A stretch of DNA of 64,000 nt from Marinoscillum pacificum. Its GTDB lineage: Bacteria > Bacteroidota > Bacteroidia > Cytophagales > Cyclobacteriaceae. The notes below the pieces were generated by a model. The model saw only the letters and a list, made by a program, of their open reading frames with translations. It was not told the DNA's origin and did no database searches. Positions 28,583 through 54,543 of the stretch are shown piece by piece (position 1 is the first letter of the stretch; every line of letters starts with the position of its first letter). Made by a program: the position numbers and the translations under genes. The stretch covers positions 1 to 64,000 of the forward strand of contig NZ_JAMZMJ010000003.1 in assembly GCF_024714495.1 (NCBI RefSeq), read 5' to 3'.

Positions 28583-28592
28583 CAATCGATTG
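28583..28592. promoter_or_regulatory. LacI-type operator 1 (GH43-GH51 unit)
   Basis: Perfect palindrome CAATCGATTG inside ACACAATCGATTGCGTAAAT, 90 bases before the GH43 start. It matches five other sites in this locus. A hairpin CCTTCTT/AAGAAGG (28615-28638) follows in the leader. The rest of the 349-base gap holds no other recognised feature apart from the preceding gene's terminator. Confidence 0.8.
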
Positions 28593-28681
28593 CGTAAATT
28601 AGCCTAAGTAGGTTCCTTCTTCTGAAATAGCAAGAAGGAGAAGCTAGACTAACAATTTGATGTAGTTAAGTTGATTCAATA

Positions 28682-30415
28682 ATGATGAAAAAAATGATAC
28701 TAAAATCGTGGCTCACCTCACTTGCCGCGAGTTGTTTACTATTGACTGCTACTGGTCAAAAGAACGCACCAGTATTTTCCAAAGTAGTCTACGAAGGAAA
28801 CGATCAGGTATATAATGATTACCCTTTAAAAGAAGGTGAGTTTTATAATCCTATTTTGCAGGGATGCTATCCGGATCCAGCTGTCACACGCAAGGGAGAT
28901 GATTATTACATGGTGGTGTCTTCCTTTGCTATGTTTCCGGGAGTTCCCATTTTTCACTCCAAAGACCTGGTCAATTGGACTCAAGTCGGTCATGTGTTGG
29001 ATCGTGTGTCTCAACTAGATCTGCATGATACAGGCATCAGTGAAGGCGTTTATGCTCCAGGTATCACCTACAATGAGTACAATGATACATTCTACATGAT
29101 TACTACGGCTTTTGCTGGTGGTTTGGGAAATATCATTGTAAAAACCAAAGACCCCTGGAAGGGGTGGGGCGAGCCTATCAAGTTGGACTTTCAGGGAATA
29201 GATCCATGCATCTTTTTTGACGATGATGGCAAAGCGTATGTGGTTCATAATGATGCTCCAGAAAAGGCGAAAGAACGCTATAATGGACACCGAGTTATCA
29301 AAATTTGGGAGTATGATGTAGACAAAGATCAGGTGATTGCTGGTACAGATCACATCATTATAGATGGCGGGGTTGATATAGCTAAAAAGCCTATTTGGAT
29401 TGAGGCTCCTCATCTCTATAAAAAGGGTGAGAAGTATTATTTAATGAGTGCCGAAGGTGGTACTGGAGGCTGGCATAGTGAGGTGGTTTTCATCAGTGAC
29501 AGCCCAAAAGGACCTTATGTTCCTGCTCCGAGTAACCCTATTCTTACGCAAAGGCATTTTCCAAAAGACCGACCAAACATGGTGGATTGGGCTGGGCATG
29601 CTGATATCATCAAGGGGCCTAATGATCAGTATTACGGAGTGTTTTTGGCTGTTAGGCCGAATAAGTCGGGTAGAGTGAATACAGGACGTGAGACGTTTAT
29701 ACTGCCGGTTGACTGGTCAGGCATATTTCCGGTTTTTGAAAATGGACTAGTGCCACTGGAGCCCAAACTAAAAATGCCTGAAGGAGTGGTTAACGAAACG
29801 CATAGCGGGAAGTATTTTCAGAATGGCAATTTTACGATCATCGAAGATTTTACTTCTGATAAGCTACACCCACGCTGGATTGGGTTGAGAGGCCCGAGAG
29901 AAGCTTTCATAGAAATCACCAGAAAAGGACTAAAAATCAATCCATTTGACGCACATATTCGAGAACTGAAACCAACTTCCACGCTTTTTCACAGACAACA
30001 ACATGATGTATTCACATTTACTACGAGCATGATCTATCAGCCGGATTCTAAAAATGATCTTGCTGGAATCACTTGTCTGCAAAATGAAGGGTCCAATTAT
30101 GTGTTTGGAGTCACCAAAATAGATGGAGAATATGTGCTTTTGCTAGAGCGCAACTGGTGGCCAGGTCGGCAGGGAGAGAAATTTTCCAAGATTGTGGCTA
30201 TGGCCAAAATTGATGTTAAGAAACCGATACGACTTCAAGTTGCCGCTGAAGGGGATGATTATCAATTTAATTATTCTACTGATGGAAAGACTTTTAAGAA
30301 TTTAGGAGGTATCGTTTCGGGAGATATCTTGTCAACCAATGTAGCTGGTGGTTTTACCGGAACTCTCATTGGTTTATATGCTACTTCTAATAATGCATCA
30401 CTTCCAGAGAATTAA
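28682..30415 (+). CDS. GH43 beta-xylosidase/alpha-L-arabinofuranosidase
   Basis: 577-residue exported enzyme (signal MKKMILKSWLTSLAASCLLL, cleavage near TATGQ). It is an N-terminal five-bladed GH43 propeller with the three expected acidic residues: Asp65 in CYPDPAV (base), the Asp in QGIDPCIF (pKa modulator) and the Glu in WIEAPHLYKKG (acid). A C-terminal beta-sandwich of about 200 residues follows, typical of XynB-like beta-xylosidases. It would release xylose or arabinose from xylo-oligosaccharides in the periplasm. It lies downstream of a predicted LacI operator and is followed by the GH51 gene, together forming an arabinoxylan side-chain and end-trimming pair. Confidence 0.88.
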   Translation: MMKKMILKSWLTSLAASCLLLTATGQKNAPVFSKVVYEGNDQVYNDYPLKEGEFYNPILQGCYPDPAVTRKGDDYYMVVSSFAMFPGVPIFHSKDLVNWTQVGHVLDRVSQLDLHDTGISEGVYAPGITYNEYNDTFYMITTAFAGGLGNIIVKTKDPWKGWGEPIKLDFQGIDPCIFFDDDGKAYVVHNDAPEKAKERYNGHRVIKIWEYDVDKDQVIAGTDHIIIDGGVDIAKKPIWIEAPHLYKKGEKYYLMSAEGGTGGWHSEVVFISDSPKGPYVPAPSNPILTQRHFPKDRPNMVDWAGHADIIKGPNDQYYGVFLAVRPNKSGRVNTGRETFILPVDWSGIFPVFENGLVPLEPKLKMPEGVVNETHSGKYFQNGNFTIIEDFTSDKLHPRWIGLRGPREAFIEITRKGLKINPFDAHIRELKPTSTLFHRQQHDVFTFTTSMIYQPDSKNDLAGITCLQNEGSNYVFGVTKIDGEYVLLLERNWWPGRQGEKFSKIVAMAKIDVKKPIRLQVAAEGDDYQFNYSTDGKTFKNLGGIVSGDILSTNVAGGFTGTLIGLYATSNNASLPEN

Positions 30416-30568
30416 CACAGGTATAGTTTATTGATTGGTTAAGAAAGAAGCTTTCCTGAGGTGTGCTAGGCATCCTAAACGTAATTCAATTCACCTGTAT
30501 TGAAGAGTTTGTGGGTGTTATCTCAGGGACTTCTTTTTTCATTTGAATCCTACTAATAATCCAAAAAA

Positions 30569-32107
30569 ATGAAAAAGTCTTATATGTTAGCAATTTGGTT
30601 GAGCAGCACCTCCTTGCTATTATCCGCACAGAATGTGCAAGTAAAAGTCCATACGGACCAACCTGCAAATCAGATCAATAAACATATTTACGGTCACTTT
30701 GCTGAACACTTGGGTAGAGGAGTTTACGGTGGACTATATGTAGGTGATACCAGCAGCATTCCTAACACAGATGGTGTTCGTAATGATGTGATCGATGCAT
30801 TGAAAGATTTGAAGATTCCTAACTTGAGATGGCCAGGAGGATGCTTTGCTGATTCTTATCATTGGAAGGACGCTGTTGGTCCTAAAGATCAACGTTTAGC
30901 CACAGAAAACATGGCGTGGGGTAATGTGTGTGAAGACAATGGTTTTGGTACACATGAGTTTTTGGATTTATGTGAGCAACTAGGAGCTGAAGCATACCTG
31001 GCGACCAACATGAATTCTGGAACTGTGCGTGAAGCAGTGGATTGGGTACAATATGTGAATCATGCCAATGGCACCAGTTATCTCACCACTGATCTCAGAG
31101 AAGAAAATGGAAGAGCTACACCCTGGAATGTGAAGTTCTGGGGAATTGGCAACGAATCATGGGACTGTGGCGGCAACATGGACGTAGATCACTACACTGA
31201 TTTATACAAGCAGTATGCTACAGCTATGACCTCTTACAGTAATACGGAAGGGTTGTTTCGAGTAGCAGTCGGACCTGGCTGGGACGATTATCACTGGACT
31301 GTGGAGGTAATGAAGCAGATCCCATTGAAACGACTGGAAGGGTTATCCATTCATCACTATGCAGTGTTAGAGTGGAGCAACAAAGGTTCTTCTTATGACT
31401 TTACCGATGATCAGTATTTCAGCACCATGAAAAAAGCCTGGTTCATGGATGAATTCATTACAGAAAACTCCAAAATCATGGATCAATACGACCCTGAGAA
31501 CAAGGTTGCTTTGGTGGTAGATGAATGGGGTGGGTGGTATGCTCCAATTCCAGAGAAGGGACAGCTTTATCAACAAAATACCATGCGAGACGCCATGATT
31601 GCAGGGTTAACACTCAATGTATTTAATAATCATTCAGATAGAGTGAGGATGGCTAATTTGGCACAAACGGTTAATGTATTGCAAGCGGTAATTCTCACAG
31701 AAGAAGAAAAAATGATTCTTACGCCGACATACCACGTGATGAAAATGTATGCAGTACATCAGGACGCTACTTTGATTCCTGTTTCATTTGACAGCCCAGA
31801 GTATCATAAAGGTGAAGATCAAATTCCTGCATTGTCTATTTCTGCATCAGAGACTGATGGGAAGTTAAGCGTTTCTATGGTTAATATGGATCTTGATAAG
31901 GGGTATGCTCTTAAGTTGGATTTGTCTGGCTATGAGTTTGATACTATAAAAGGTCAAATAATTGAATCAGAAGATATTAGAGATCATAATACGTTTGATC
32001 AACCACGGAAAGTAATAACAACGGAGTTCAAAGATTTCAAGAGTAAAAAGGGAAGTACGATAGTAAGCCTTCCTGCATTTTCCGTTATGATGCTGCAGTT
32101 TGATTAG
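30569..32107 (+). CDS. abfA: Alpha-L-arabinofuranosidase, GH51
   Basis: 512-residue GH51 enzyme with a signal peptide (ending LLLSAQ), so periplasmic rather than cytoplasmic as in many Firmicutes. The barrel carries IYGHFAEHLGRGVYGG, LRWPGGCFADSYHW, acid/base Glu196 in GIGNESWD and nucleophile Glu319 in VVDEWGGWY. A C-terminal jelly roll ends the protein. It removes arabinofuranose from arabinoxylan oligosaccharides. The 153-base gap after the GH43 gene contains a long-range inverted repeat (CCTGAG 30455-30460 with CTCAGG 30522-30527), but no operator, so the two genes are probably one unit. Confidence 0.93.
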   Translation: MKKSYMLAIWLSSTSLLLSAQNVQVKVHTDQPANQINKHIYGHFAEHLGRGVYGGLYVGDTSSIPNTDGVRNDVIDALKDLKIPNLRWPGGCFADSYHWKDAVGPKDQRLATENMAWGNVCEDNGFGTHEFLDLCEQLGAEAYLATNMNSGTVREAVDWVQYVNHANGTSYLTTDLREENGRATPWNVKFWGIGNESWDCGGNMDVDHYTDLYKQYATAMTSYSNTEGLFRVAVGPGWDDYHWTVEVMKQIPLKRLEGLSIHHYAVLEWSNKGSSYDFTDDQYFSTMKKAWFMDEFITENSKIMDQYDPENKVALVVDEWGGWYAPIPEKGQLYQQNTMRDAMIAGLTLNVFNNHSDRVRMANLAQTVNVLQAVILTEEEKMILTPTYHVMKMYAVHQDATLIPVSFDSPEYHKGEDQIPALSISASETDGKLSVSMVNMDLDKGYALKLDLSGYEFDTIKGQIIESEDIRDHNTFDQPRKVITTEFKDFKSKKGSTIVSLPAFSVMMLQFD

Positions 32108-32355: not shown

Positions 32356-34221
32356 TTAATTGTACCCCGGGTTTTGAGGGTAACCACCCACTGTGGCATC
32401 TATTTCACTTTGTGGGATAGGTCTTAATAAATGGAATTCCTGAGGAGCTGGAGGCGTATACCCTGCAGCAGGAGCACCTCCATTAAACTGAAGGTTATAC
32501 TGTGCAGCAGCACTTGAGCCTTGATAGTGTACTCTTTCAAGTAATCTGCCAGTGCGCTTCAAGTCTAGCCATCTGAAATGTTCACCTGCTAGTTCTCTAG
32601 TTCTTTCATCAAGAATAAAGTCTATCTCATCACCATGTGCTCCAGTAAGGTCTGCCACCGAAATAGGAAGGGCTCCAGCTCTGTTTCTGATCACATTGAT
32701 GTAGTCTACAGCTTCGCTATTTCTGCCTAATTGAATTGCCGCTTCTGCCGCTACGAGATAAGTCTCCGCAAAACGATGTACATAGAATGGTCTAGTAGAA
32801 GCAATGTTAGGATCTTCCTCATATCCTTCTGGTCTTGCCACTCGGTTAAACTTACTCAAACTAGGGAAGTGCTTGTTTTGCTGGTTTCTTGGAAGTTCAT
32901 CCAACGCAGTTGGGCTATTTGCCGTAGGGAAATAGACCACATATCCTTTGCTATTTACCCAGGCACGTCTGTCCGCATCAGATGCAAATGAGTTCTGGAA
33001 CGATAAAGGAGCATGCCACATAGCAGTATCTCCTACCGCAAACTTAGGTTGTCCCACTTGAGATGCGTCTACATAACCAGCATCTGCTTCTGCTTGAGAC
33101 CAGGAGGGAATACTCGCTTCATCATTAGCATACCACACGGTTTGGAATGAACCATTGTATCGTTGGTCATTCACTTTGTCTTCAAAGGCCACATCAATCA
33201 TCCACGGAGTAGGGCTGAACCTAATCCAAGGTCTACCATTCTCTACATCTCTTACCATTCCTGGTACATCCTGTACGTAGAATTCGCGGAAAAGGAAGTT
33301 GTTGATATTGTCTTCAAAACCTCCAGGACTTTGAATTCCAGGGTTAAACTGTTGCTGCAAGTTCCATTCAATCGTCCACATGACCTCAGACGGCCATTCA
33401 TTACTTTCATCCCAGATATCAGCATAGTTAGATTCTAGTTCCACACCATAAGTCCCTCTGTTGGTAATCAAGTCATTCGCGAAGTAGAGTGCTGAGTCAT
33501 AATCATTCGCTCCTGCATAGGATCTATACCCTCTGAATAGGTACGCCTTGGATAGCAAATGCAATGCAGATGCCTTCCAAACTCTACCTCTCTGTGTAAG
33601 GTCAGGTCTTTGATCTGGTAAGTTGGTCGCTGCAGCCCTTAAATCAGCGATTACTCCATCCATTACTTCCTCTTCTGTAGCTCTGGTAAGAACGTTTGTT
33701 GGATTGGTATTGAATGCATAAGGTCCAGACCCCAAATCGATGGTTGCTCCACCGTATTGGCGAGCCAAAAGGAAATACCATGCGCCTCTTAAGAATTTAG
33801 CTTCAGCAATTAACTGGTCTAATTCTTCTGTGGTTAGTCCTGTGGCATCCGGTCCTATTTGGATAATACCATTACACGTGTTGATTGCGGGGTACGCATT
33901 GTTATGTGCAAAGGTGATTCTACCATTAGATGGGTTTAGTGTAGTATAAATGGCTAATGGTGTGTCGGAAATTTGTTGTCCTTCCATGTATTCATCAGAG
34001 AATACTGCCATCATTGCACCAGCTTCATAGCCATAATATGGCCGGAACCGGGCGTAAGCTGCAATTAGCCCATTTCTTAATCCGTCCGCTGAAGCAAACG
34101 TTTCAGGAGTTAGACTTCCTCTTGGTGTCTCTTCCAGAATGTCTTCACATCCAGAGAGTATCGCTAACATCATTAATGATGCACAACTAATTTTTAATAA
34201 CTTTTTCACTGTGTCAAACAT
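32356..34221 (-). CDS. susD: SusD/RagB-type lipoprotein (xylan locus)
   Basis: 621-residue surface lipoprotein (lipobox LAILSGC), longer than the SusD at 15196. It opens with EDILEETPRGSLTPETFAS and carries the helical SusD core (AEAKFLRGAWYFLLARQYGGA). Its C-terminal block reads FILDERTRELAGEHFRWLDLKRTGRL. The C-terminus PQNPGYN is also typical. It binds xylan fragments and caps the partner SusC. ATG 34221 lies just past the susC stop codon; an earlier in-frame ATG at 34236 would overlap susC by 14 bases. Either way the two genes are translationally coupled. Confidence 0.95.
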   Translation of the reverse strand: MFDTVKKLLKISCASLMMLAILSGCEDILEETPRGSLTPETFASADGLRNGLIAAYARFRPYYGYEAGAMMAVFSDEYMEGQQISDTPLAIYTTLNPSNGRITFAHNNAYPAINTCNGIIQIGPDATGLTTEELDQLIAEAKFLRGAWYFLLARQYGGATIDLGSGPYAFNTNPTNVLTRATEEEVMDGVIADLRAAATNLPDQRPDLTQRGRVWKASALHLLSKAYLFRGYRSYAGANDYDSALYFANDLITNRGTYGVELESNYADIWDESNEWPSEVMWTIEWNLQQQFNPGIQSPGGFEDNINNFLFREFYVQDVPGMVRDVENGRPWIRFSPTPWMIDVAFEDKVNDQRYNGSFQTVWYANDEASIPSWSQAEADAGYVDASQVGQPKFAVGDTAMWHAPLSFQNSFASDADRRAWVNSKGYVVYFPTANSPTALDELPRNQQNKHFPSLSKFNRVARPEGYEEDPNIASTRPFYVHRFAETYLVAAEAAIQLGRNSEAVDYINVIRNRAGALPISVADLTGAHGDEIDFILDERTRELAGEHFRWLDLKRTGRLLERVHYQGSSAAAQYNLQFNGGAPAAGYTPPAPQEFHLLRPIPQSEIDATVGGYPQNPGYN

Positions 34222-34222
34222 T

Positions 34223-37200
34223 TTAGAATTGAACATTGATTCCGAAAATGAAACTTTTCATTATTGGCGAATCTGGAGTTACTACCAAACGCTGGCTACC
34301 ATCACCGAATCCTGAAGTTGAAGTACTTCCTGTTCCATTTGGTTCTGGATCTACAGCACCAGCTTTAACCAGGTCAGAGAAGAAGGCTTTGAAAGGATTG
34401 TTTGCTGTAACATATACCCTGGCTGATTTAAGACCTACTTTATCCAATACCACAGGAGGTAGGGTATAGCCTAGGTTGATGCTTCTGATTTTTGCGAATG
34501 TCGCATTGAAATAACCCAACGTAGACCCGTATTGTGGGCTTTGAAGTCCTGGTCTTGGATAAGCGTTTGTAGGATTGTCTGGAGTCCAGTAGTCTACATC
34601 TGCCTGGTTTCTTCTTCCTTCCATCGTAGCAATTGGGAAACTTACGTTTCCTTGATGGAATCTACTGATAGTCATACCACCAACTCTTGCAAATGCTACT
34701 ACAGACAAATCAAATCCTTTATATCCGAAACGTGTAGTGATTCCTCCAATCCAGTCAGGGTTTAATTTTCCGATGATTGTACGGTCTTCATCATCTCTGA
34801 TGCCATTCCCGTTAACATCTTCTACTTTGATATCACCAGGTACTCTACCATCGAATGTGCTTGCTTCATCAGCTTCATCGGATTGCCAGATACCAATTTT
34901 TCGGTAATCATAAATCACATCCATTGGCTCACCTACAAACCACCCATTGCTGATATTTCTTTTTAAAGTATCCACTAGCTGAGTGATTTCCTCTTGCCAA
35001 CTTGTAAAGTTTACATCTACTTCAAAACTGAAATCCCCTGGAGATTTTGGCTCTACAATAAGGGCATTCATTGCAAGCTCAATACCTCTGTTTCTTGTTT
35101 GACCAATATTCACACGATAGCTTCCAGCTACACCAGACATGATTGGAAGATCCTGGGATTGAAGGATGTCTTCAGTGTCTTGTTGATACACTTCGATACT
35201 ACCTTTGATCCGGTTGGTTAAGAAACCAAAGTCAACTCCGATGTTGGCCGTTTTGGTAAACTCCCACGATAAATTGTTATTGGCAAGGTTGCTCACCTCA
35301 TAGCCAATCACACCGCCATCAGGTCCGATGTTGTATAGTCTCTCACCTAGTGAACCTAAAGAGGCATATGGTGCAATCGCCTGGTTGGATGTAAGTCCAT
35401 ATCCAGCTCTTAGTTTAAGCTCTGAAACTGGTGTTACTCCGCCCATGAAAGACTCATTTTTGATGTTCCAACCAAGTGCAACCGCAGGATATACGAAGTA
35501 TTGACTTCCTTTAGCTAGTCTTGACGATCCATCTACTCGTCCTGTTAATGTCAATAAGTAGCGATTATCATAGGCATAGTTCGCTCTGGCCATATAGGAG
35601 ATGATACCCCATTCTGAATAAGTTGGGCTATCAGCTACTGTGGTTCCTGACTGTGAGAAATCATAGAACTGTAATTGATCGTTGACGATGCTATTGGTTC
35701 CGAAGGACTCCTGAGTGAATTTGTCTTTTTGTACACTGAAAAGACCTGTTAGGTTTAAGCTATGCTTTTGTGCAATTACCTTGTCATAAACCAATAGGTT
35801 TTCAATGGTGTAATTATAACCGTGGTTGTTTAAGCTATTGGCCGTGTTGGGTTGGTTGCTTCTCAGAATGGCACTCGTGAAATTACCTCTTTTGGTAAAG
35901 CTTCCATCAAGTCCTACGTTGATTCTGTATTTAAGACCATCCAATATTTTCACCTCACCGTAGAAACTGTTGAAAGCTCTCATTTGTCTTCTCTCAGATA
36001 CCCAAAGATCCGAGTTGTAAAGTAGGAGAGGGTTTACTCTGTTGTCATCAATGTGGCCTATAGCAGGCAATCGGTTTACTTCTCCATCTTCAGTGTATGG
36101 TTTGAACAATGGACTCATTGTCAGGATATTGAAGTAAGGGTTTTGACTTTCTCCTAAAGAAACATTGTATGAAAGCTGAGAGCTGATTCCTAATTTAATC
36201 CGATCATTCACCTGATGATCCAATGTCAACCTCATAGAGTTTCTATTGAAAGATTGTCCAGGTAAAGCATTGGTTTCTTTGAAGTAGTTTCCGGAGAAAA
36301 GGAATTGAGTCTTATCTGTACCACCAGTAAAACTTAATTCATGATTTGTGATTATACCCTGCTTTAGCATCAAATCTTGCCAATCAACTGATCTTGCCAA
36401 GTCTATTGATTCACGTTCATCTGCTGTTAACTCATACTGACCAGCGTCTTGTACGAACTTAGCATACTCTTCACCATTGAATACATCGTAGTTGCCAAGT
36501 GGTTGAGAAATACCATGGTAGCCATTATAGCTTACATTCGATTCTCCTGCTCGACCTCTTTTGGTCGTAATTAGAATTACACCATTAGCACCTCTGGAAC
36601 CATAAATCGCAGTAGAAGAGGCATCTTTCAAGATGTTTATAGATTTAATGTCTCCTTGGTTGATACTATTAAGTCCACCTAGATAAGGAATACCATCCAA
36701 TACTACCAAAGGCTCGTTAGCAGAGTTACCTCCAAGAGATCTGTTCCCTCTAATTCGGATTCTCATTTCAGCTCCAGGTCTGGAACTGGTTCTCTGCAGC
36801 TGAACACCGGCAATGCGACCTTGGAGTGCCTGAGTAACATTAGGGGCAGGTACTTCTGTGATAGCCTTGGCGTTGACAGTGGTAATTGCTCCTGTAACAT
36901 CACTTTTCTTTTGAGTTCCATAACCGACAACTACCACTTCAGACAACTGCTCGATATCTGTGGATAAGGAAATGTCTATTTTGGATTGGTTACCAACTTT
37001 TACTTCTTGTGTTTTGAAGCCTATAAAACTATAGCTTAGAGTCTGTCCGGATTCCACTTCTATAGAATAGTTACCAGACATGTCTGTTGTAGTTCCTTTT
37101 GCGGAACCTTTGATTAAAACAGTTACTCCTGGTAGTTCAGCACCTGTATCATCTGTTACAGTACCAGATACGGTTTGCTGAGCGTACAACTGGTTTGGAA

Positions 37201-37309: not shown

Positions 37310-37366
37310 AGATTTATTGTGTTTGAGTACTAGATCCTGATCGGCTCGGATGTAGTACAGGTTAAG

Positions 37367-37376
37367 CAATCGATTG
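37367..37376. promoter_or_regulatory. LacI-type operator 2 (SusC/SusD unit)
   Basis: Perfect CAATCGATTG 58 bases upstream of the susC start. Read toward susC it is TTTAAACAATCGATTGCTTAA, matching the extended consensus of the other sites. Confidence 0.8.
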
Positions 37377-38618: not shown

Positions 38619-38649
38619 CAAAAGTATTTACGAGACATAATATAAACAA
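38619..38649 (-). promoter_or_regulatory. Predicted promoter of the TIG lipoprotein gene, overlapping the operator
   Basis: On the minus strand, TTG (the end of the operator palindrome) is separated by exactly 20 bases from TACTTTTG (38619-38626). This agrees with the Bacteroidota -33 TTTG and -7 TAnnTTTG elements. Regulator binding would cover the -33 element, which fits repression. Confidence 0.5.
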
Positions 38650-38656
38650 TCGATTG
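38647..38656. promoter_or_regulatory. LacI-type operator 3 (TIG lipoprotein unit)
   Basis: Perfect CAATCGATTG within AAACAATCGATTGCGTAAA, 84 bases upstream of the start codon of the TIG lipoprotein gene and downstream of the GH30 stop. Confidence 0.8.
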
Positions 38657-40065: not shown

Positions 40066-40095
40066 GAATGTGTTTGTTATATTTACTAATTTACA

Positions 40096-45807: not shown

Positions 45808-46980
45808 CTATTTCATGGAGTGAAGGATTCCTACTTCCAGACCTCTCAACTCTGCCAACGCCTTCAATCTGCCAATCGCTGAATATCCGGGATATGTCGT
45901 TTTATTTAAATCATCGAGCATTTGAAATCCGTGATCCGGTCTCATGGGTAAAGAAAGCTGTCTGCGATCCATGATATTGAGCACTTCTTTCACAATTGCT
46001 GGCATGTCTGCATCACCATTCAGATGTTCGGCTTCTTGAAAATTACCATATTCATCCATTTTGGTATTTCTCAAGTGTAGAAAATGTACCTGATTACCGA
46101 AGCGTTGTAGCATTTTTAGCAATTCATTATCCTTCCTGGCACCTAGAGAGCCGCTGCAAAAGCAAAGGCCATTAGCAGGTGAGTCAATGAAGGAAATGAT
46201 GTCTTCAAGGTCTTGCTCTGTGCTGACAATTCTCGGTAATCCTAAAACAGAAACGGGAGGATCATCAGGATGAATTGCAAAGCAAATGCCATGTTTCTCC
46301 GCAATAGGAATGATTTCATTGAGAAAATCAGATAGGTGTTTTTTCAATAATTGCGTGTCTATATGAGCATATTTTGCCAGTTCGCTTAACACCAACTCTG
46401 GAGTAAATTTCTCATCACTTCCTGGCAATCCCAACATCATGTCATCAAACAATTTCTTGCGTTCATCATCTGATAGTTTGTTGAAATAGGTAGTAGCAGC
46501 TACAAGTTCTTCTTGGCTGTAATGGCTTTCTGCACCAGGTCTTTTCAGTAAGTAAACATCAAATGTTACAAAAGCATCTTTCTCAAATCGCAAGGTGCGA
46601 GAACCATCTGGTAACGTGAAATTTGGATGTGTCCTCAACCAATCTAGCACTGGCATGAAGTTGTAAGTTATCACCTTGATTCCCTCTGCTGCCAGATTAA
46701 CTATGGAAGTCTTATAGTTCTCAATGAACCGTTTATAGTCTCCAGTTTGTCGCTTGATGTCATCATGAACCGGCAAACTCTCCACAACTTTCCACTCCAG
46801 TCCATGAGCTTCTATCATTTGTTTACGCTCTTGTATGGCTTCTCTTGTCCATACTTCGCCCACTGGTATCTGATGCAAGGCACTCACCACACCCGAGCAT
46901 CCTGCCTGACGGATGTCAGAGAGGCTCACCACATCATTGGGACCATACCAACGCATGGTCTGGGTCATTCTAAATTTCAT
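45808..46980 (-). CDS. uxuA: Mannonate dehydratase
   Basis: 390-residue cytoplasmic enzyme of hexuronate catabolism that converts D-mannonate to 2-keto-3-deoxygluconate. Full-length UxuA fold (metal-dependent TIM barrel) with RWYGPNDVVSLSDIRQAG at the N-terminus. Metal-site residues are in FAIHPDDPP, LCFCSGS, HFLHLRN and MRPDHG. It lies 12 bases downstream of the GH67 alpha-glucuronidase gene on the same strand, so glucuronate released from xylan is directly linked to its breakdown. The preceding step in this locus is the SDR oxidoreductase at 54593. Glucuronate isomerase (UxaC) and KDG kinase/aldolase are not in this window. Confidence 0.95.
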   Translation of the reverse strand: MKFRMTQTMRWYGPNDVVSLSDIRQAGCSGVVSALHQIPVGEVWTREAIQERKQMIEAHGLEWKVVESLPVHDDIKRQTGDYKRFIENYKTSIVNLAAEGIKVITYNFMPVLDWLRTHPNFTLPDGSRTLRFEKDAFVTFDVYLLKRPGAESHYSQEELVAATTYFNKLSDDERKKLFDDMMLGLPGSDEKFTPELVLSELAKYAHIDTQLLKKHLSDFLNEIIPIAEKHGICFAIHPDDPPVSVLGLPRIVSTEQDLEDIISFIDSPANGLCFCSGSLGARKDNELLKMLQRFGNQVHFLHLRNTKMDEYGNFQEAEHLNGDADMPAIVKEVLNIMDRRQLSLPMRPDHGFQMLDDLNKTTYPGYSAIGRLKALAELRGLEVGILHSMK

Positions 46981-46992: not shown

Positions 46993-49137
46993 TTACCACC
47001 TTGGTTTGATGCCTGGTGCGTACGGAAAAGTTAATTTTTTGTAATGATCAAGATCTTTCGGTGCAGGCTCCAGCATCGCAGGCCAGTCCTTTTTAGAATA
47101 CGTCTGGAAATATAGCATGGAAGCATTTTTCCACCACTTGGCTTCATCCAGTTGAATGTTTAGCAGTTGCTCTACTTCCGCAAATAGATCTGGATCGATT
47201 TTAGACTTTAAGGAATGCCAGTCTTTTTGCATGTTTTTCACCGAATTGATTCCGGATTGGTACTTGAATCCAAGCTCATTCCATAGTGTTCTTCCAGATT
47301 TCATTTCATAATCCCATGGAACATGATGAAACCATAAGATGTATTTCTCAGGGCAACTTTTTAGATTTCCATATTTTCTGTTGAGTTCGCCGCTGTATTG
47401 TGCTACAGCGTTGCTTCCTGTTTTTGTACGATCAAAACCAATTCCGTTAGCATCTGATTTGTGATAGTAATATGGAGTCCAGTCTGCTCGCGAAAGATTG
47501 TCTACCCACGGAGCAGGGCCATAATGGTGACCAGTTCCCATGAGGTGGTGAAGTCCAAGTGGAGTCATATAATTGATTGACGCTTCCCATGAACTCATGA
47601 GCATTTTTGTGATAGTTGAGACAACTTGCGCATCATTTCCATATGAAGATTTGACCCATTCCTGAGCGATGTTTTCTGAGGATAACTGTGGGTCCCAGCT
47701 TAGCCTTCCAAAAGCAAACCAGTTGGACTGAGCCATAGGATGTCCGGTCCAGTTCAAGTCATTACCAATATTGGCTACTCCAGCGATACCAGTCATTTTA
47801 TAGTCATGCAGACTTCCGTCAACCACTTTAGAAACTGTAGAGCCTTTTCCCTCTGTATAGGTGTCCGTGTCTAGTACTTCCTTGTACATCGGAGCCAGAT
47901 AAACCAACTGAGTAGCTTGTCCAAGGTATTCTTGAGTAATTTGAAACTCCATCATCAGTGGAGTCTTCGGCATAGCCCCAAACAACGGATGAATCGGTTC
48001 TCTTGGTTGAAAATCGATAGGTCCGTTCTTTACTTGCACTAACACATTGTCTTCAAATTGACCGTCCAAAGGCTTAAATTCGGTGTACGCTTGCTTGGCG
48101 CGATCATCAGGCTCGTCCTCACTATAGACAAATGCACGCCACATGACTATACCACCATGTGGTTTCACGGCTTTGGCCAACATATTGGCGCCATCTACAT
48201 GCGATCGGCCATAGTTTTGAGGGCCTGGTTGACCTTCAGAGTTAGCTTTTACCAGGAATCCACCAAAGTCCGGAATGATTTTGTAAACTTCTGCTGCTTT
48301 GTCATTCCACCATTTTTGCACTTCTTCATTGAGAGGATCTGCTGTTTTTAGTCCTCCAATTTCTATGGGAGCACTAAATCGTGCTGTTAGGTAAACTTTG
48401 ATCCCGTAAGGACGAAACAGGTCGGCTAGTGCCTTGGTCTTTTCGATATAAGGTTTGGTTAAGATAAGTGCATTGGAGTTTACGTTCGTTAAAACCGTTC
48501 CATTGATTCCGATGGATGCATTGGCTCTGGCATAGTCACGGTATCTGGCGGGCAAATACCCAGGGAGTCGGTGCCAGTCCCAGATGGAAAACCCTGCATA
48601 ACCTCTTTCAGATGACCGATCCAGATTGTCCCAATGGTTAAGTATGCGCACATCTATCGCAGGATTGCTGGTGATTTTGAGATCGTCTATAGAAGAGGAG
48701 GTCTGTAGCAAACGGATGAATTGAAAAGTCCCATAAAGTAGTCCGGAGGAGGAAGGGCTTGTGATCACAATTTGTTTATTGACCTTTTGGATAACAAAAC
48801 CTTCCTGTTTAAGACTGGCTGTTTCGATGGCTTTTTTAAGGTCAGGTGAGAGTTTCGATGCAGGTAGGATAACCACATCAGCATTTTTTTGATCATATAC
48901 TTGCTGGATGTCCTGATTGAGCAGCTTGGGAAGTGCATTGTCCAATTCGGTTGTAATAATATTACGCGTATCAGAAGCTTCAGCTATGAAATACGATTGA
49001 ATGGAAGATTGATAAGAAGTTATTGCTGCACCATTTTCCAATTGATCGTAACCGAGCCATAAGTCATAGCCTGTTTGTGAATGTAAGGTGTTGAGTAGAA
49101 TGGAGGAAAATAAGAAGGTATATAGGACTTTCATCAT
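46993..49137 (-). CDS. aguA: Alpha-glucuronidase, GH67
   Basis: 714-residue exported enzyme (signal ending TLHSQ) that removes (4-O-methyl-)glucuronate from the non-reducing end of xylo-oligosaccharides. Three GH67 domains are present: N-terminal beta-alpha (about 25-150), TIM barrel (150-480) and helical C-terminus. Catalytic signatures include FLVKANSEGQPGPQNYGRSH and the stretch DGQFEDNVLVQVKNGPIDFQ with REP, which holds the paired acidic bases. It is the first gene of the GH67-uxuA operon, with operator and promoter just upstream. Start ATG 49137 (MM); ATG 49134 is equivalent. Confidence 0.95.
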   Translation of the reverse strand: MMKVLYTFLFSSILLNTLHSQTGYDLWLGYDQLENGAAITSYQSSIQSYFIAEASDTRNIITTELDNALPKLLNQDIQQVYDQKNADVVILPASKLSPDLKKAIETASLKQEGFVIQKVNKQIVITSPSSSGLLYGTFQFIRLLQTSSSIDDLKITSNPAIDVRILNHWDNLDRSSERGYAGFSIWDWHRLPGYLPARYRDYARANASIGINGTVLTNVNSNALILTKPYIEKTKALADLFRPYGIKVYLTARFSAPIEIGGLKTADPLNEEVQKWWNDKAAEVYKIIPDFGGFLVKANSEGQPGPQNYGRSHVDGANMLAKAVKPHGGIVMWRAFVYSEDEPDDRAKQAYTEFKPLDGQFEDNVLVQVKNGPIDFQPREPIHPLFGAMPKTPLMMEFQITQEYLGQATQLVYLAPMYKEVLDTDTYTEGKGSTVSKVVDGSLHDYKMTGIAGVANIGNDLNWTGHPMAQSNWFAFGRLSWDPQLSSENIAQEWVKSSYGNDAQVVSTITKMLMSSWEASINYMTPLGLHHLMGTGHHYGPAPWVDNLSRADWTPYYYHKSDANGIGFDRTKTGSNAVAQYSGELNRKYGNLKSCPEKYILWFHHVPWDYEMKSGRTLWNELGFKYQSGINSVKNMQKDWHSLKSKIDPDLFAEVEQLLNIQLDEAKWWKNASMLYFQTYSKKDWPAMLEPAPKDLDHYKKLTFPYAPGIKPRW

Positions 49138-49162: not shown

Positions 49163-49193
49163 CAAGTTTAGTATTTATATAATATTTACACAA
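49163..49193 (-). promoter_or_regulatory. Predicted GH67-uxuA promoter overlapping the operator
   Basis: On the minus strand, TTG at the end of the palindrome is followed after exactly 20 bases by TAAACTTG (49163-49170), one mismatch from TAnnTTTG. This is the same geometry as at 38619-38649, again placing the -33 element inside the operator. Confidence 0.5.
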
Positions 49194-49200
49194 TCGATTG
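49191..49200. promoter_or_regulatory. LacI-type operator 5 (GH67-uxuA unit)
   Basis: Perfect CAATCGATTG within TTTACACAATCGATTGTTTAA, 54 bases upstream of the GH67 start codon. It is 336 bases from the divergent GH10 gene, so its effect there is uncertain. Confidence 0.82.
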
Positions 49201-49535: not shown

Positions 49536-50810
49536 ATGATGAAATCGATACAACTCTTACGATATAGGATTGGCCTTTTGATGATACTCAGTCTATGCTG
49601 GTCCATCACTTTTGGACAAAGCCCTATTGCTCAGGGAAAGCCTAAATGGTTAGGAAATATTTACAGCAGTGCACAGGTGACAGATTTCACTGAATATTGG
49701 AATCAGGTGACTCCCGAGAATGCCGGCAAGTGGGGTAGTGTGGAAGGTACCAGAGATGTGTTTAACTGGGGGCAATTGGACGCGGCCTATGCTTTAGCGA
49801 AAGACAATGGTTTTCCTTTTAGATTTCATGTGCTTTTTTGGGGTTCTCAGCAGCCGGGTTGGATTGCTACGCTAAGCAATGAAGAGCAGTTGGAGGAGAT
49901 CAATGAGTGGATGGATGCCGTAGCAGAGCGTTATCCAGAAATTGATTATTTGGAGGTGGTCAATGAACCACTTCATGCACCACCTTCAGGCCTAACATCG
50001 GGTAATTATAGTAAGGCTCTTGGCGGTGGTGGAGTTACTGGTTGGGATTGGATCCTGGAAGCATTTAGATTGTCAAGGGAGAAATTTCCGAATGCCCAGT
50101 TAATGATCAATGATTACAACATAGTAGGAAGTACAAGTGAGACTACACGATATCTAAGAATCATTGAACTGCTACAAGAACAGAACTTGATTGATGCTAT
50201 CGGAGTGCAAGCACATGCATTTTCGACAACTGGAGATGAGGAGGTAATCAAATCAAACCTGGATGCATTGGCTGCTACAGGATTGCCAATTATTGCCACC
50301 GAAATGGATATAGATGGGGGTACCAATGCTAGTAATGATGATCAACTGCAGCTAGAAGAGTACCAACGCATATTTCCAGTTTTTTGGGAACATCCATCCG
50401 TCATTGGAGCGACCTTGTGGGGGTGGAGACCAGGCCTTTGGAGGAATGATGAAGCAGCATATTTAGTACGAAGTAATGGTAGTGAAAGACCTGCTTTGGA
50501 ATGGCTTAGATCGTATGTTGAGAATAAAACTGTCTTTGAGTTTGGAACAGTATTGTCGGCAGCAAACAAATCTCAAATTAAAGTATATCCAAACCCAATT
50601 ACTACCCATTCATTTGAGTTGATCACCGATCAATCTTTTATTCGACTAGATCTATTGAATTTATTTGGTCAACAAGTATATACACAGGGTTCTGTGAATA
50701 GCGGTTCACAAACAATTGTGTTGGATAAGTCACTTTCATCAGGAGTTTACCTCCTACGATTACAGTCGGAGCAAGATGATGTATTCATAAAACGTTTGAT
50801 CATTAAATAG
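49536..50810 (+). CDS. GH10 endo-beta-1,4-xylanase with T9SS sorting domain
   Basis: 424-residue secreted xylanase. Signal peptide (ending ITFGQ), GH10 barrel (about 30-335) with NQVTPENAGKWGSVEG, acid/base Glu144 in EVVNEPLHAP and nucleophile Glu256 in IIATEMDID, then a type IX secretion C-terminal domain (about 350-424, VYPNPITTHSFEL, SSGVYLLRLQ). The usual WHSQ motif after strand 3 reads WGSQQPGW here, so it belongs to a divergent GH10 branch compared with its neighbour. It should cut xylan outside the cell. It is the first gene of the GH10-GH10-transporter-GH43 series, 16 bases before the next gene. Confidence 0.9.
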   Translation: MMKSIQLLRYRIGLLMILSLCWSITFGQSPIAQGKPKWLGNIYSSAQVTDFTEYWNQVTPENAGKWGSVEGTRDVFNWGQLDAAYALAKDNGFPFRFHVLFWGSQQPGWIATLSNEEQLEEINEWMDAVAERYPEIDYLEVVNEPLHAPPSGLTSGNYSKALGGGGVTGWDWILEAFRLSREKFPNAQLMINDYNIVGSTSETTRYLRIIELLQEQNLIDAIGVQAHAFSTTGDEEVIKSNLDALAATGLPIIATEMDIDGGTNASNDDQLQLEEYQRIFPVFWEHPSVIGATLWGWRPGLWRNDEAAYLVRSNGSERPALEWLRSYVENKTVFEFGTVLSAANKSQIKVYPNPITTHSFELITDQSFIRLDLLNLFGQQVYTQGSVNSGSQTIVLDKSLSSGVYLLRLQSEQDDVFIKRLIIK

Positions 50811-50826
50811 CTTTTAAGCATATCTC

Positions 50827-51972
50827 ATGAAAATGATAAAGACCTACATAGTTACGGTATTCCTTGGAGCATTGATGTGGTCCTGTCAATCTGATCAGGG
50901 GCAACACGAAGATGAAACACCTCAAAGCTTGAGAGAAGCATATGCTGATGATTTTCTCATCGGAACAGCACTGGGGTACAGTCAATTGATCGCTTCAAGT
51001 GAGAAGGAACAAGCATTAATTGCAGCTCAATTCAGTGTAGTTACACCTGAGAACATGATGAAGTGGGAGCGCATTCATCCAGAGCCTTATACGTTCAATT
51101 TTGGTTTGCCGGACAGTCTAATTGAACTGGCAAGCAGGAATAATCAAAAGGTATTTGGACATACCCTTGCCTGGCATAGTCAGACGCCGGATTGGCTGTT
51201 TGAAGATTCTCTTGGCAACCTGATCGATACTGCCACCTTATTTGCAAGGATGGAACACCACATCAATAACGTTGCTGGACGGTACAAAGGAAAGATTCTT
51301 GGTTGGGATGTGGTTAATGAAGCCTTAAATAATGACGGTTCTTACCGAAATTCCAAATACTATCAAATAGCTGGTGAGGAGTTCATTTTTAAAGCTTTTG
51401 AATATGCCGCCAAAGCCGATCCAAATGCAGAGCTGTACTACAATGATTACAGTATGAATGTACAGTCTAAGGTTGATGGAGCAGTTGAGATAGCGACTAA
51501 GGTTCGTGATAAGGGTCTTCGAATTGATGGGATTGGAATGCAAGGACATTGGGGGATAGACAGACCTTCTATTGACTTGATAGAACAAAGTATTCTAAAA
51601 ATCCACGATGCAGGATTTAAAGTGGCGATAACGGAATTGGATATTGATGTTTTGCCAAACCCATATCGAATAGAAGGAGCCAACATTTCTGACAGTTTTG
51701 AGAACAATGCGGAGGCAAATCCATATGCTGATGGTTTGCCAGATTCAGTCAATCAAGCACATGCTCAGCGATATGAAGAGCTCTTCAAATTATTCTTAAA
51801 ACACAAAGATAAAATTGATAGGGTTACTTTCTGGGGAGTACATGATGGGCATTCATGGAAGAATGACTGGCCTGCTAGAGGCCGCACCAATTACTGTTTG
51901 GTATTTGATAGAAATCTTGACCCGAAGTTGGCATATGATAAGATCATGACCTTAAAATCGGAAACACACTAA
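50827..51972 (+). CDS. GH10 endo-beta-1,4-xylanase lipoprotein
   Basis: 381-residue lipoprotein (signal ending LMWSC) with a canonical GH10 barrel: VTPENMMKWERIHPEP, GHTLAWHSQTPDW, acid/base Glu165 in DVVNEALN and nucleophile Glu270 in AITELDID. It has no accessory domain and no T9SS tail, so it is held in a membrane, on the surface or facing the periplasm. Paired with the secreted GH10 just upstream it probably shortens imported or surface-bound xylo-oligosaccharides. The transporter gene starts 11 bases after its stop. Confidence 0.94.
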   Translation: MKMIKTYIVTVFLGALMWSCQSDQGQHEDETPQSLREAYADDFLIGTALGYSQLIASSEKEQALIAAQFSVVTPENMMKWERIHPEPYTFNFGLPDSLIELASRNNQKVFGHTLAWHSQTPDWLFEDSLGNLIDTATLFARMEHHINNVAGRYKGKILGWDVVNEALNNDGSYRNSKYYQIAGEEFIFKAFEYAAKADPNAELYYNDYSMNVQSKVDGAVEIATKVRDKGLRIDGIGMQGHWGIDRPSIDLIEQSILKIHDAGFKVAITELDIDVLPNPYRIEGANISDSFENNAEANPYADGLPDSVNQAHAQRYEELFKLFLKHKDKIDRVTFWGVHDGHSWKNDWPARGRTNYCLVFDRNLDPKLAYDKIMTLKSETH

Positions 51973-51983: not shown

Positions 51984-53435
51984 ATGAGCAACGAATCCGG
52001 AAAACTCTCTGTCATAGAGAAGGTTGGTTACAGTTTAGGTGACCTGGCAGCTAATCTTGTTTTCCAAACACTGGTAACCTACCTGGCTTACTTTTATACC
52101 GATATTTATGGTCTGAAGACAGGTGACTCCTCAGCCATTATACTAACAGTGGGATTGATCGCAGCTTTCGCTTTTAACCCTATTGTGGGAGCAATAGCCG
52201 ACAGAACCCGGTCCAGATGGGGGAAATTTCGTCCATGGATATTGTGGACAGCAGTACCTCTTGGTGTCATAGCTTTGTTGGCTTTTAGTACTCCAGATTT
52301 CTCATACAAAGGCAAGTTGATCTATGCAGCTGCCACTTATACCTTGCTTTTGTTGCTCTATGCAGCCAATAATCTTCCTTATTCTGCTCTGAGTGGTGTA
52401 ATCACCGGTGACATGGGTGAGCGAAATAGTGTGTCTTCTTACCGGTTTGTGGCAGTAATGTTTGCTCAGTTTTTTGTGCAAGTCTTCATGTATCCATTGA
52501 TCCTCAGCGCAGGCAATGGTGATAAATCTGCCGGAATTGAGATTGTGATGACTTATCTGGCAATCATCGGTACAGTGATGTTGTTGATCACCTTTTTCAC
52601 TACCAAAGAGCGAATCGTTCCTAAAAGAGAGCAGGAATCTAGCGTGATGGAGGATTTGAAGGATTTAATGAAAAACAAACCCTGGCTGATCATGCTTACG
52701 TCTACTTTTCTGGTATTTGTCACACTAGCCATGAAAGGTGGTTCTTATGTGTATTATTTTGAGAACTATGTAGACAAGACTGCTTTGGCAGATTTCTTAA
52801 GCCCTGTTTTAGGCTTTCTCGGATCAATCGGGATGAATTTTTTCAGTGATGATCCTATATCGGCTGGTTTTGGAATTTTCAATGCTGGAGGAATTATCTT
52901 CATGATTGTGGGGATAACTCTTTCCAAAACACTAGCGGATAAATACGGCAAGAGAGACGTGTTCATGGCAGCACTTTTTGTGTCTACATTGTTTATTCTG
53001 TTTTTCGTGTTCTTTTCTCCAGATTCAATTGTCCTGATTTTCGGTTCGCAGATTCTACACGGATTTTTTTACGGAATCACCATTCCATTACTATGGGCAA
53101 TGATTGCGGATGTGGCTGATTTTTCTGAATGGAAGAACAACCGAAGAGCAACAGCGATCATTTTTTCAGCCATGATGATTGGTTTGAAGGGAGGACTTAG
53201 TGTAGGAGGAGCTTTAGTTGCCTGGATTCTGGGTGTTTATCAATACATACCAAAAGAGGATATTACTGAATCATTTGTTGGACAGCCCGAAACGGCGGTT
53301 GAAGGGACTCGACTGCTGGTAAGTATATATCCATCAATTCCATTTTTCTTATGTATAGGATTACTATTCTTCTATGAGATCAATAAGAAAATGGAATCCA
53401 AAATTGAGGCTGATTTAAAACTTAAAAGAGTTTAA
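51984..53435 (+). CDS. GPH-family sugar:cation symporter (xyloside transporter)
   Basis: 483-residue inner-membrane transporter with about twelve membrane segments. The glycoside-pentoside-hexuronide (MelB/XynP-type) signature appears at the start (GYSLGDLAANLVFQTLVTY) and in the cytoplasmic loop IADRTRSRWGKFRPW. A longer loop near residues 265-290 separates helices 7 and 8. It should carry xylobiose or other short xylosides with Na+ or H+ into the cytoplasm. It is tightly packed: 11 bases after the GH10 gene and 2 bases before the cytoplasmic GH43 gene, which implies uptake coupled to intracellular hydrolysis. Confidence 0.92.
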   Translation: MSNESGKLSVIEKVGYSLGDLAANLVFQTLVTYLAYFYTDIYGLKTGDSSAIILTVGLIAAFAFNPIVGAIADRTRSRWGKFRPWILWTAVPLGVIALLAFSTPDFSYKGKLIYAAATYTLLLLLYAANNLPYSALSGVITGDMGERNSVSSYRFVAVMFAQFFVQVFMYPLILSAGNGDKSAGIEIVMTYLAIIGTVMLLITFFTTKERIVPKREQESSVMEDLKDLMKNKPWLIMLTSTFLVFVTLAMKGGSYVYYFENYVDKTALADFLSPVLGFLGSIGMNFFSDDPISAGFGIFNAGGIIFMIVGITLSKTLADKYGKRDVFMAALFVSTLFILFFVFFSPDSIVLIFGSQILHGFFYGITIPLLWAMIADVADFSEWKNNRRATAIIFSAMMIGLKGGLSVGGALVAWILGVYQYIPKEDITESFVGQPETAVEGTRLLVSIYPSIPFFLCIGLLFFYEINKKMESKIEADLKLKRV

Positions 53436-53437
53436 TT

Positions 53438-54493
53438 ATGGCGGATGAATTTGATCATATAGATTTTGAAGAATTAAATACTAAGGCAATTTCTCAGCCC
53501 TTGGTAACTCATATATATACTGCAGATCCCTCTGCGCATTATTTCAATGGCAAGATTTACATATATCCGAGTCATGATATTGATGGAGGGGAGGCATTTG
53601 ATGATTTGGGAAGTCACTTTAAAATGAGGGATTACCATGTCTTTTCTATGGATTCTGTGGATGGAGATGTGACGGATCATGGTGTTGCGCTGGATGTGGA
53701 TAATGTGAAATGGGCTGCAAAACAAATGTGGGCTCCTGATGCGCATGAAAAGGATGGTAAATACTATCTATATTTTCCAGCTAAAGATCATGAGGGCATT
53801 TTTAGAATTGGAGTGGCCGTGAGTGATCACCCAACAGGGCCTTTTGTGGCACAACCTGAGGCAATTAAAGAGAGTTTTTCGATAGATCCTGCAGTATTTA
53901 AAGACGATGACGGAAGTTACTATCTGTACTTTGGCGGACTATGGGGCGGTCAGCTTCAACGTTGGAGAAACGGATTTTATAATTCTGAGCAGGCGGAAAG
54001 TCCAACGGCTCATTTGCCTGAAGATCATGAGCCAGCCTTAACAGCGATGGTAGCTAAACTGAAAGAGGATATGCTGGAGTTTGATGAGACTCCTGTTAAT
54101 GCTCTGATTCTTGATGAAAATGGTGAGCCTCTATTAGCTGGTGATAATGAACGAAGGTTTTTTGAAGGAGCCTGGATGCATAAGTATAAGGGGAAGTATT
54201 ATTTGTCTTATTCTACAGGAGATACACATTTTCTATGTTATGCTACTGGTGATAGTCCATACGGTCCATTTACTTACAGAGGACAGATTCTTGGGCCGGT
54301 AGTGGGGTGGACCACCCATCATTCCATTTGTGAGATTAAAAATAAGTGGTATCTGTTTTATCATGATTCGATACTCTCTGAAGGGAAGACGCATTTACGA
54401 TGCATCAAGGTAACTGAATTGGAGTATGAAGAGGATGGAACTATCAGAATGATTGATCCTTATCCGGGATTTGATTCTGATAAATTGATTTAA
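53438..54493 (+). CDS. Cytoplasmic GH43 beta-xylosidase
   Basis: 351-residue single-domain GH43 enzyme without a signal peptide, so cytoplasmic, unlike the other two GH43 proteins here. Propeller acidic residues are Asp in YTADPSAH, Asp in SIDPAVF and Glu in FFEGAWMHKYKG. The architecture matches GH43 subfamily 1 enzymes commonly encoded beside XynP/XynT-type transporters in Bacteroidota. The expected role is splitting imported xylobiose or arabinosyl-xylosides. The start codon lies 2 bases after the transporter stop, indicating translational coupling. It is the last gene of this unit. Confidence 0.92.
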   Translation: MADEFDHIDFEELNTKAISQPLVTHIYTADPSAHYFNGKIYIYPSHDIDGGEAFDDLGSHFKMRDYHVFSMDSVDGDVTDHGVALDVDNVKWAAKQMWAPDAHEKDGKYYLYFPAKDHEGIFRIGVAVSDHPTGPFVAQPEAIKESFSIDPAVFKDDDGSYYLYFGGLWGGQLQRWRNGFYNSEQAESPTAHLPEDHEPALTAMVAKLKEDMLEFDETPVNALILDENGEPLLAGDNERRFFEGAWMHKYKGKYYLSYSTGDTHFLCYATGDSPYGPFTYRGQILGPVVGWTTHHSICEIKNKWYLFYHDSILSEGKTHLRCIKVTELEYEEDGTIRMIDPYPGFDSDKLI

Positions 54494-54533
54494 ATAATTC
54501 TTGACCGATTGATATTTTTTTATTCGCGCAAAT

Positions 54534-54543
54534 CAATCGATTG
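54534..54543. promoter_or_regulatory. LacI-type operator 6 (mannonate oxidoreductase-GH115 unit)
   Basis: Perfect CAATCGATTG extended to the 16-base palindrome AATCAATCGATTGATT (54531-54546), 50 bases before the oxidoreductase start. Its flanks differ slightly from the other five sites. Confidence 0.8.

What the first reader, a model, noticed from the sequence alone, without database searches (positions are those of the whole stretch)
28583..54543. Six-site palindromic operator regulon covering the xylan locus
CAATCGATTG occurs perfectly at 28583, 37367, 38647, 40096, 49191 and 54534. All six sites are intergenic and 50-90 bases (30 in the divergent spacer) upstream of xylan or glucuronate genes. 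A 10-base word is expected about 0.06 times in 64 kb with even base use. The flanks extend to TTTACnCAATCGATTGnGTAAA. LacI-family operators typically have a central CG, and a LacI-family gene closes the locus. Xylan PULs of studied Bacteroides and Prevotella are run by hybrid two-component systems, so LacI control of a SusC/D xylan locus is unusual.
Basis: partly seen in the sequence, partly recalled or inferred. Interest (0 to 1): 0.85.

Follow-up and report, generated by a model that had tools for sequence, protein, structure and literature searches.

The report
LacI operator regulon of xylan genes
Six identical DNA switch sites sit in front of the xylan-digestion genes of a Bacteroidota bacterium, and the same switch recurs beside LacI-type regulator genes and xylan genes in many relatives, so this looks like a real control circuit of a familiar kind that our searches did not find described.

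Summary
Confirmed: CAATCGATTG occurs six times in the window (shuffles: mean 0.14), each at a gene front. The genome holds 12 more copies, eight inside genes and four at gene fronts: a LacI paralogue, a second xylan SusC, two pectin genes. A motif model built only from other organisms puts five of the six window sites on top genome-wide. The neighbouring HTCS locus has no exact copy.

In 50 relatives' loci with the same LacI clade, a site of the family precedes GH67 in 33 of 39 and LacI in 34 of 50 cases; the A/T-swapped control gives 0 and 0. Its sister clade shows it before SusC in 12 of 13.

So a LacI-controlled, probably repressed, xylan/glucuronate regulon is well supported by sequence. 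Binding, effector and sign of control are untested. LacI control of xylan loci is known in Xanthomonas. Solid, moderate novelty.

The parts
28583..28592 (.). operator 1, 89 bases before ATG of GH43 (28682-30415), likely also GH51 downstream
   Evidence: (21.0 bits)
37367..37376 (.). operator 2, 57 bases before likely ATG of SusC (minus strand)
   Evidence: (17.2 bits)
38647..38656 (.). operator 3, 83 bases before the TIG-domain protein gene (minus strand)
   Evidence: (20.1 bits)
40096..40105 (.). operator 4, in the divergent spacer of GH30 (minus, 30 bases) and the SASA/deacetylase gene (plus, 26 bases)
   Evidence: (21.4 bits)
49191..49200 (.). operator 5, 53 bases before GH67 (minus), 335 bases before GH10 (plus)
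   Evidence: (18.3 bits)
54534..54543 (.). operator 6, perfect core but poor flanks, 49 bases before likely ATG of the UxuB-like dehydrogenase
   Evidence: 8.4 bits, E 0.26 in the window; not in the genome-wide list
28682..30415 (+). GH43 with GH43_C2
30569..32107 (+). alpha-L-arabinofuranosidase (GH51-type by domain)
32356..34236 (-). SusD
34223..37369 (-). SusC (longest ORF; likely ATG at 37309)
37409..38563 (-). IPT/TIG-domain protein, likely surface glycan binder
   Evidence: role inferred
38755..40098 (-). GH30 (longest ORF; likely ATG at 40065)
40132..42810 (+). SASA esterase plus polysaccharide deacetylase
42756..44111 (+). glucuronyl esterase
44122..45759 (+). GH43-CBM6
45808..46980 (-). 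UxuA mannonate dehydratase
   Evidence: over cut-off
46993..49137 (-). GH67 alpha-glucuronidase
49536..51972 (+). two GH10 xylanases (49536-50810, 50827-51972)
51984..53435 (+). GPH-type sugar symporter
   Evidence: over cut-off for TIGR00792
53438..54493 (+). GH43 without an obvious signal peptide
   Evidence: signal judged by eye
54584..55390 (+). UxuB-like D-mannonate oxidoreductase (SDR)
   Evidence: over cut-off for NF006132
55359..58262 (+). GH115 alpha-glucuronidase
58350..59360 (-). LacI-family regulator, diverged paralogue of the conserved C5 regulator

Best explanation
The six sites are operators of a LacI-family regulator clade that controls glucuronoxylan use in Bacteroidota. Shown by sequence: clustering at xylan transcription units, conservation of core and flanks before GH67 and LacI itself in relatives, and a shift in operator preference between two LacI clades. 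Inferred: a LacI dimer sits on CAATC|GATTG close to or over the start of transcription and blocks the xylan genes until a xylan-derived sugar (xylo-oligosaccharide, aldouronate or glucuronate) lowers its affinity. Two paralogues are candidates in this genome. The conserved orthologue on contig C5 (C5:44864-45877), with the site in its own promoter, is the more likely main repressor; the window LacI probably shares the operators with altered ligand response, or is being lost.
For: Six sites against 0.14 expected. A model from relatives' sites only gives five window sites as the best five places of the genome, then the C5 LacI promoter, two pectin-locus sites and the SusC front of a second xylan locus (150 of 2685 first-look candidates scored). 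In the first 49 LacI loci CAATCGATTG is first of 1024 palindromes (36 loci; runner-up 17), in the other 31 it ranks 57th. A site of the seven-word family lies before GH67 in 33 of 39, LacI in 34 of 50, other genes in 39 of 450; A/T-swapped words 0, 0 and 3. Sister clade: LacI 24 of 36, SusC 12 of 13. In both same-genus genomes a site precedes GH67. Both own paralogues fall in one supported clade, 99/93.
Against: No binding, expression or mutant data. No promoter box at a fixed distance: TAnnTTTG 22 seen, 20.6 in shuffles, so repression rests on short operator-to-ATG gaps. Operator 6 has poor flanks. Beyond GH67 and LacI the window's targets are weakly conserved in the same clade: GH43 4 of 12, GH10b 2 of 9, SusC 1 of 4, GH115 1 of 8, SASA 1 of 15, UxuA 0 of 34, SDR 0 of 11. 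In 14 of 48 clade loci no listed site word lies within 450 bases before LacI, and none before LacI in the same-genus genome G007. The CAACCGATTG form is also common in the first clade (22 of 50 loci). The window LacI breaks 20 of 118 clade-conserved columns (median 3). Relatives are not independent.
Confidence: 0.82

Rival explanations
1. The window LacI alone is the local repressor; the C5 paralogue serves another regulon with the same core.
For: It lies at the end of the xylan locus, falls in the operator-linked clade, and keeps the STVSRAL stretch and nearby residues of the clade.
Confidence: 0.15
2. The sites are bound by a broader hexuronate/pectin regulator (UxuR/KdgR-like LacI), and the xylan genes are only part of a uronate regulon.
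For: Two of the four outside gene-front sites lie at pectin genes near two other LacI genes; in G044 sites stand at the front of an altronate-dehydratase-family gene and of a LacI gene (42% to the window's) followed by a UxaC gene. LacI-type UxuR, KdgR, UxaR, UxmR are predicted in Bacteroides (PMC3878776, passages seen).
Against: All four half-sites at the pectin genes read GT[AG]CAATC, whereas all twelve window half-sites have A at that third outer place, which suggests a different regulator with the same core; but the C5 site has one half with G there and the C4 site one with C. GH43-GH51 and SusC units also carry sites.
Confidence: 0.25
3. The sites mark an activator or a global factor (for instance a Crp-like protein) and not a LacI repressor.
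For: No promoter geometry could be fixed; a Crp-like palindrome is predicted before sugar operons in Bacteroides (PMC3878776, passage seen); LacI genes near xylan clusters of Roseithermus rise on xylan and are read there as activators (PMC7409140, passage seen).
Against: That Crp-like consensus (TATGTTnTAnAACATA) is different. The core AAnCGnTT with central CG is LacI-like (recalled), and operator preference changes with the LacI clade.
Confidence: 0.05
4. Chance or a generally common word.
For: CAATCGATTG is commoner than its reversed word in about 108 of 118 family genomes (my count), also in genomes without a close LacI, and 8 of 12 outside copies are inside genes.
Against: Clustering P 1.8e-11, place at gene fronts, extended flanks, conservation at orthologous genes against controls.
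Confidence: 0.01

Closest known systems
Xanthomonas XylR (LacI family) and xylan CUT loci
   Same: LacI-type repressor over TonB-linked xylan loci, induced by xylose or xylo-oligosaccharides (PMC13282271, passage seen)
   Different: Proteobacteria; operator and orthology with the clade here not compared
Bacteroides UxuR / KdgR / UxaR / UxmR (LacI family, predicted)
   Same: LacI-type control of glucuronate and related catabolism in the same phylum (PMC3878776, table passage; PMC4052901, passages seen)
   Different: Listed there for monosaccharide/uronate pathways, while the polysaccharide loci of that study are assigned to HTCS and SusR-like regulators; motifs and sequences not available here
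Gramella flava JLT2011 xylan PULs
   Same: SusC/D, GH10, GH43, GH67 loci; lacI named in the PUL figure legend (PMC5306329, passages seen)
   Different: No operator or regulatory test in the passages seen
Hybrid two-component systems of Bacteroides xylan PULs
   Same: Same type of target locus (PMC10766802, passages seen)
   Different: Membrane sensor with AraC-type domain and direct-repeat sites (PMC3878776, passages seen); here a soluble LacI and a palindrome

Membership tests
LacI-family repressor and operator | LacI HTH plus periplasmic-binding-type effector domain | tested here: met
   PF00356 40 bits (cut-off 27) and Peripla_BP_3 113 bits in the window protein; C5 paralogue 53.9 bits for PF00356
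LacI-family repressor and operator | palindromic operator with central CG near targets and the regulator's own gene | tested here: met
   palindrome before targets and before C5 LacI; not before the window LacI
LacI-family repressor and operator | regulator and operator co-vary | tested here: met
   exact word anywhere in 36 of 50 loci of one clade and 2 of 30 of the other set, Fisher P 5.9e-9; outside genes 30 of 50 and 2 of 30; relatives not independent, one of the 30 (L135) not on the tree
LacI-family repressor and operator | DNA binding relieved by a sugar; repression | not testable with these tools
   needs EMSA and mutants
HTCS-controlled PUL | HTCS gene within the locus | tested here: not met
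   none of the 20 ORFs scanned between 27139 and 60624 is an HTCS; the HTCS at 7735-11802 is followed by SusC, SusD, GH5, GH2 and GH31 genes, without an exact site
Xanthomonas XylR | orthology of regulator and same operator | not tested
   XylR sequence not fetched
Bacteroides UxuR/KdgR | orthology of regulator and same operator | not tested

The most novel reading that the evidence does not exclude
A phylum-wide xylan switch with a two-repressor layer: a conserved autoregulated LacI sets the xylan regulon in Bacteroidota through CAAYCGATTG operators, and in this genome a second, fast-diverged LacI without self-control, changed at two places of the effector domain (N250I, H295Q; pocket role recalled from E. 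coli LacI), competes for the same operators so that two different xylan fragments are read by one set of sites.
Probability: 0.3. Interest if true: 0.65.

Novelty: new member of a known kind. Interest (0 to 1): 0.5.

Why it matters
Hemicellulose loci are commonly said to be run by HTCS, ECF or catabolite control (PMC10766802, passages seen). A LacI/operator pair conserved at GH67 and lacI in flavobacterial, cytophagal and saprospiral genomes, and at SusC with the sister clade, gives a readable and testable regulatory code: the operator predicts xylan genes, and the two LacI clades with slightly different operators are a natural specificity series.

Tried and rejected
Fixed promoter geometry: TAnnTTTG around operators in 134 site-gene pairs, not above shuffles. 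By eye the GH67 fronts of flavobacteria suggest TTTTG about 19 bases after the operator start and a TAATTTTC-like box; not tested. Paired operators: 24 of 70 relatives' sites have a second degenerate site within 160 bases (30 seen, 4.2 in shuffles), but in the window only 38647 has such neighbours, so looping is not claimed. The residue before TVSR (S against A/T) tracks CAATCGATTG against CAACCGATTG only in part: three AT and one PA regulators of the first clade keep CAATCGATTG. Genome-wide copy number of the word does not separate genomes with and without the LacI: G012, G025 and G091 have a clade-type LacI match but one exact copy each; their LacI loci have the one-letter variant upstream. 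Of 14 best family LacI loci (L139-L152; four are the same contigs as named loci) I read a family site or a near one before LacI in 11 and none in L142, L145, L147. No AlphaFold job was run.

The first swapped-word control had one letter wrong; it was repeated correctly with two rougher controls, whose numbers are used here (one search gave 1 of 39 for GH67). In one search the rougher words gave 0 of 39 and 0 of 50 for GH67 and LacI in the first clade.

Papers: the motif string was searched (20 papers hold it, 18 listed, titles and abstract starts seen, none of these titles concerns a LacI operator). Searches gave no listing that describes this operator. Passages of PMC12915301 were also seen and held nothing on it.

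Rows dropped: 10 of 29 family LacI loci (L139-L167) and L135 did not enter the tree, because my script's pattern or ORF choice missed them.
Full report
Observation. CAATCGATTG is at all six places named (shuffles mean 0.14). It is the commonest 10-base palindrome of the window, 6 against at most 2. Operator-to-ATG gaps are 89, 57, 83, 30 and 26 (divergent), 53 and 49 bases. The genome of 6.40 Mb has 18 copies, six of them here. Of the 12 others, eight are inside genes and four at gene fronts: before the SusC-type gene of a second xylan locus with two GH10, GH3, GH26 and an HTCS (C4:145994), before a LacI gene (C5:44743), before SusC of a pectin locus (C28:183261) and in the first bases of the longest ORF of a GH28 gene (C28:199315). 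With the outside copies as background, six in 26 kb has P 1.8e-11; four or more gene-front copies among 12 has P 0.009 at the window's non-coding fraction.

The locus. Pfam and NCBIfam support GH43, an arabinofuranosidase, SusD, SusC, TIG protein, GH30, SASA/deacetylase, glucuronyl esterase, GH43-CBM6, UxuA, GH67, two GH10, GPH symporter, GH43, UxuB-like dehydrogenase, GH115 and LacI: a glucurono(arabino)xylan locus with uronate steps. The six operators stand before the likely units GH43-GH51, SusC-SusD, TIG, GH30 and SASA onward, GH67-UxuA (perhaps GH10 onward), and UxuB-GH115; unit boundaries are inferred. The neighbouring stretch 7735-25651 has an HTCS, SusC, SusD, GH5, GH2 and GH31 (a fucosidase gene is at 6090-7625), a xyloglucan-type locus by inference, and no exact site. 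Words with one mismatch do occur in and beside it, at 10465, 18849, 25464 and 26774.

Relatives. One scan of genome contigs with the two own LacI paralogues gave 80 loci kept of 193. A tree of 105 LacI rows shows a supported clade of 64 rows (99/93) with both own paralogues, and a sister clade of 32 rows (100/100). Fifty of the 80 loci (L058-L106 and L113) fall in the first clade; of the other 30, 29 are in the sister clade and L135 was not on the tree. In the first 49 loci of the list the word is first of 1024 palindromes (36 loci, 52 copies; next 17 loci), in the other 31 it is 57th with 2 copies. By clade the exact word is in 36 of 50 against 2 of 30 loci, and outside genes in 30 of 50 against 2 of 30. 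Within 450 bases before LacI, the second list of 30 loci (L113 included, L135 not) has CAACCGATTG, either strand, in 18 and CAATCGATTG in 2. The CAACCGATTG form also occurs in the first clade: outside genes in 22 of 50 loci against 20 of 30. So this is a shift of preference, not a clean split.

With the seven-word site family, a site lies before GH67 in 33 of 39 first-clade cases, LacI in 34 of 50, other genes without a window homologue in 39 of 450; A/T-swapped words give 0, 0 and 3. The rest of the window's target list is less conserved there: GH43 4 of 12, GH10b 2 of 9, SusC 1 of 4, GH115 1 of 8, SASA 1 of 15, GH43c 1 of 10, UxuA 0 of 34, SDR 0 of 11. In the sister set: LacI 24 of 36, SusC 12 of 13, GH67 2 of 14, others 6 of 185, swapped words 0. 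Of three family genomes asked, loci came back for 5 of 7, 5 of 11 and 5 of 9 sites: of these 15, eight are well inside genes, three in the first 30 bases of an ORF, four between genes. Both same-genus genomes have one before a GH67 gene 64% identical to that of the window.

Independent motif model. A sequence-only model from 33 relatives' sites (plus nine reverse complements; none from this genome) finds nine places in the own genome at E up to 10: five of the six window sites on top (17.2-21.4 bits on the better strand), then the C5 LacI promoter (13.3), the two pectin sites (12.5 each) and the C4 SusC front (12.0). None of the eight intragenic copies appears, and neither does 54534 (150 of 2685 first-look candidates scored). 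In the window alone, every position scored, 54534 is the sixth place at 8.4 bits, E 0.26.

Which LacI? The genome has seven LacI-family genes. The C5 gene is 83% identical to that of Marinoscillum, 71% to that of a same-genus genome, and has the operator about 112 bases upstream. The window gene is 51% identical to it, at most 54% to any relative found, has a long branch, no site upstream, and differs at 20 of 118 clade-conserved columns; the median is 3, C5 has 3, and only L105 with 29 has more among 61 rows. Two of these, N250I and H295Q, fall where E. coli LacI contacts its inducer (recalled, not computed). Both keep the STVSRAL stretch. I read C5 as the main regulator and the window copy as a diverged second one.

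Flank classes. Three places outside the core the twelve window half-sites have A; the four pectin half-sites read GT[AG]CAATC. The C5 site has one half with G there, the C4 site one with C. So another LacI, perhaps one of the two near the pectin genes, may use the same core with different flanks. This is a lead only; n is small.

Mechanism. Shown by sequence: operator, targets, conservation, shift with LacI clade. Inferred: repression, relief by a xylan fragment, autoregulation through C5. Short distances, above all 26 and 30 bases to two divergent ATGs at 40096, fit blocking of transcription better than activation, but promoters are not mapped and the box search was negative.

Known work. LacI-type XylR represses xylan loci of Xanthomonas (PMC13282271, passage). 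Beta-1,4-xylan systems are said to be run by LacI-family or HTCS regulators (PMC12125979, passage). LacI-type uronate regulators are predicted in Bacteroides (PMC3878776, PMC4052901, passages). A review names HTCS, ECF and catabolite repression as the common controls of hemicellulase genes (PMC10766802, passages). lacI is in the figure legend of the Gramella flava PULs (PMC5306329, passages). Roseithermus lacI genes near GH clusters go up on xylan, read there as activation (PMC7409140, passage). None of the passages seen gives this operator. The circuit is a new member of a known kind, with broad conservation as the main gain.

Noticed in passing
G000 C28:183261 and C28:199315 (L022, L023, L050, L051): Two copies of the same core at pectin genes (SusC; GH28) with GT[AG] flanks, near two further LacI genes: a possible sister pectin regulon with the same core.
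   Followed up: partly
window 3295-25651: HTCS with SusC, SusD, GH5, GH2, GH31 and a fucosidase gene: a xyloglucan-type locus (by inference) directly beside the xylan locus, free of the exact operator.
   Followed up: partly
L059, L063, L067, L100 and others: Paired operators 57-153 bases apart in relatives (24 of 70 sites), possible looping.
   Followed up: partly
L107-L137: Sister LacI clade often has the slightly asymmetric CAACCGATTG before LacI, and a site of the family before SusC in 12 of 13.
   Followed up: partly
window 59650-60624: Deoxyhypusine-synthase-family protein (PF01916) beside the xylan locus in a bacterium.
   Followed up: no
118 family genomes: CAATCGATTG is commoner than its reversed word in about 108 of 118 genomes of the family (my count), whatever their LacI content; a few genomes have almost none.
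   Followed up: no
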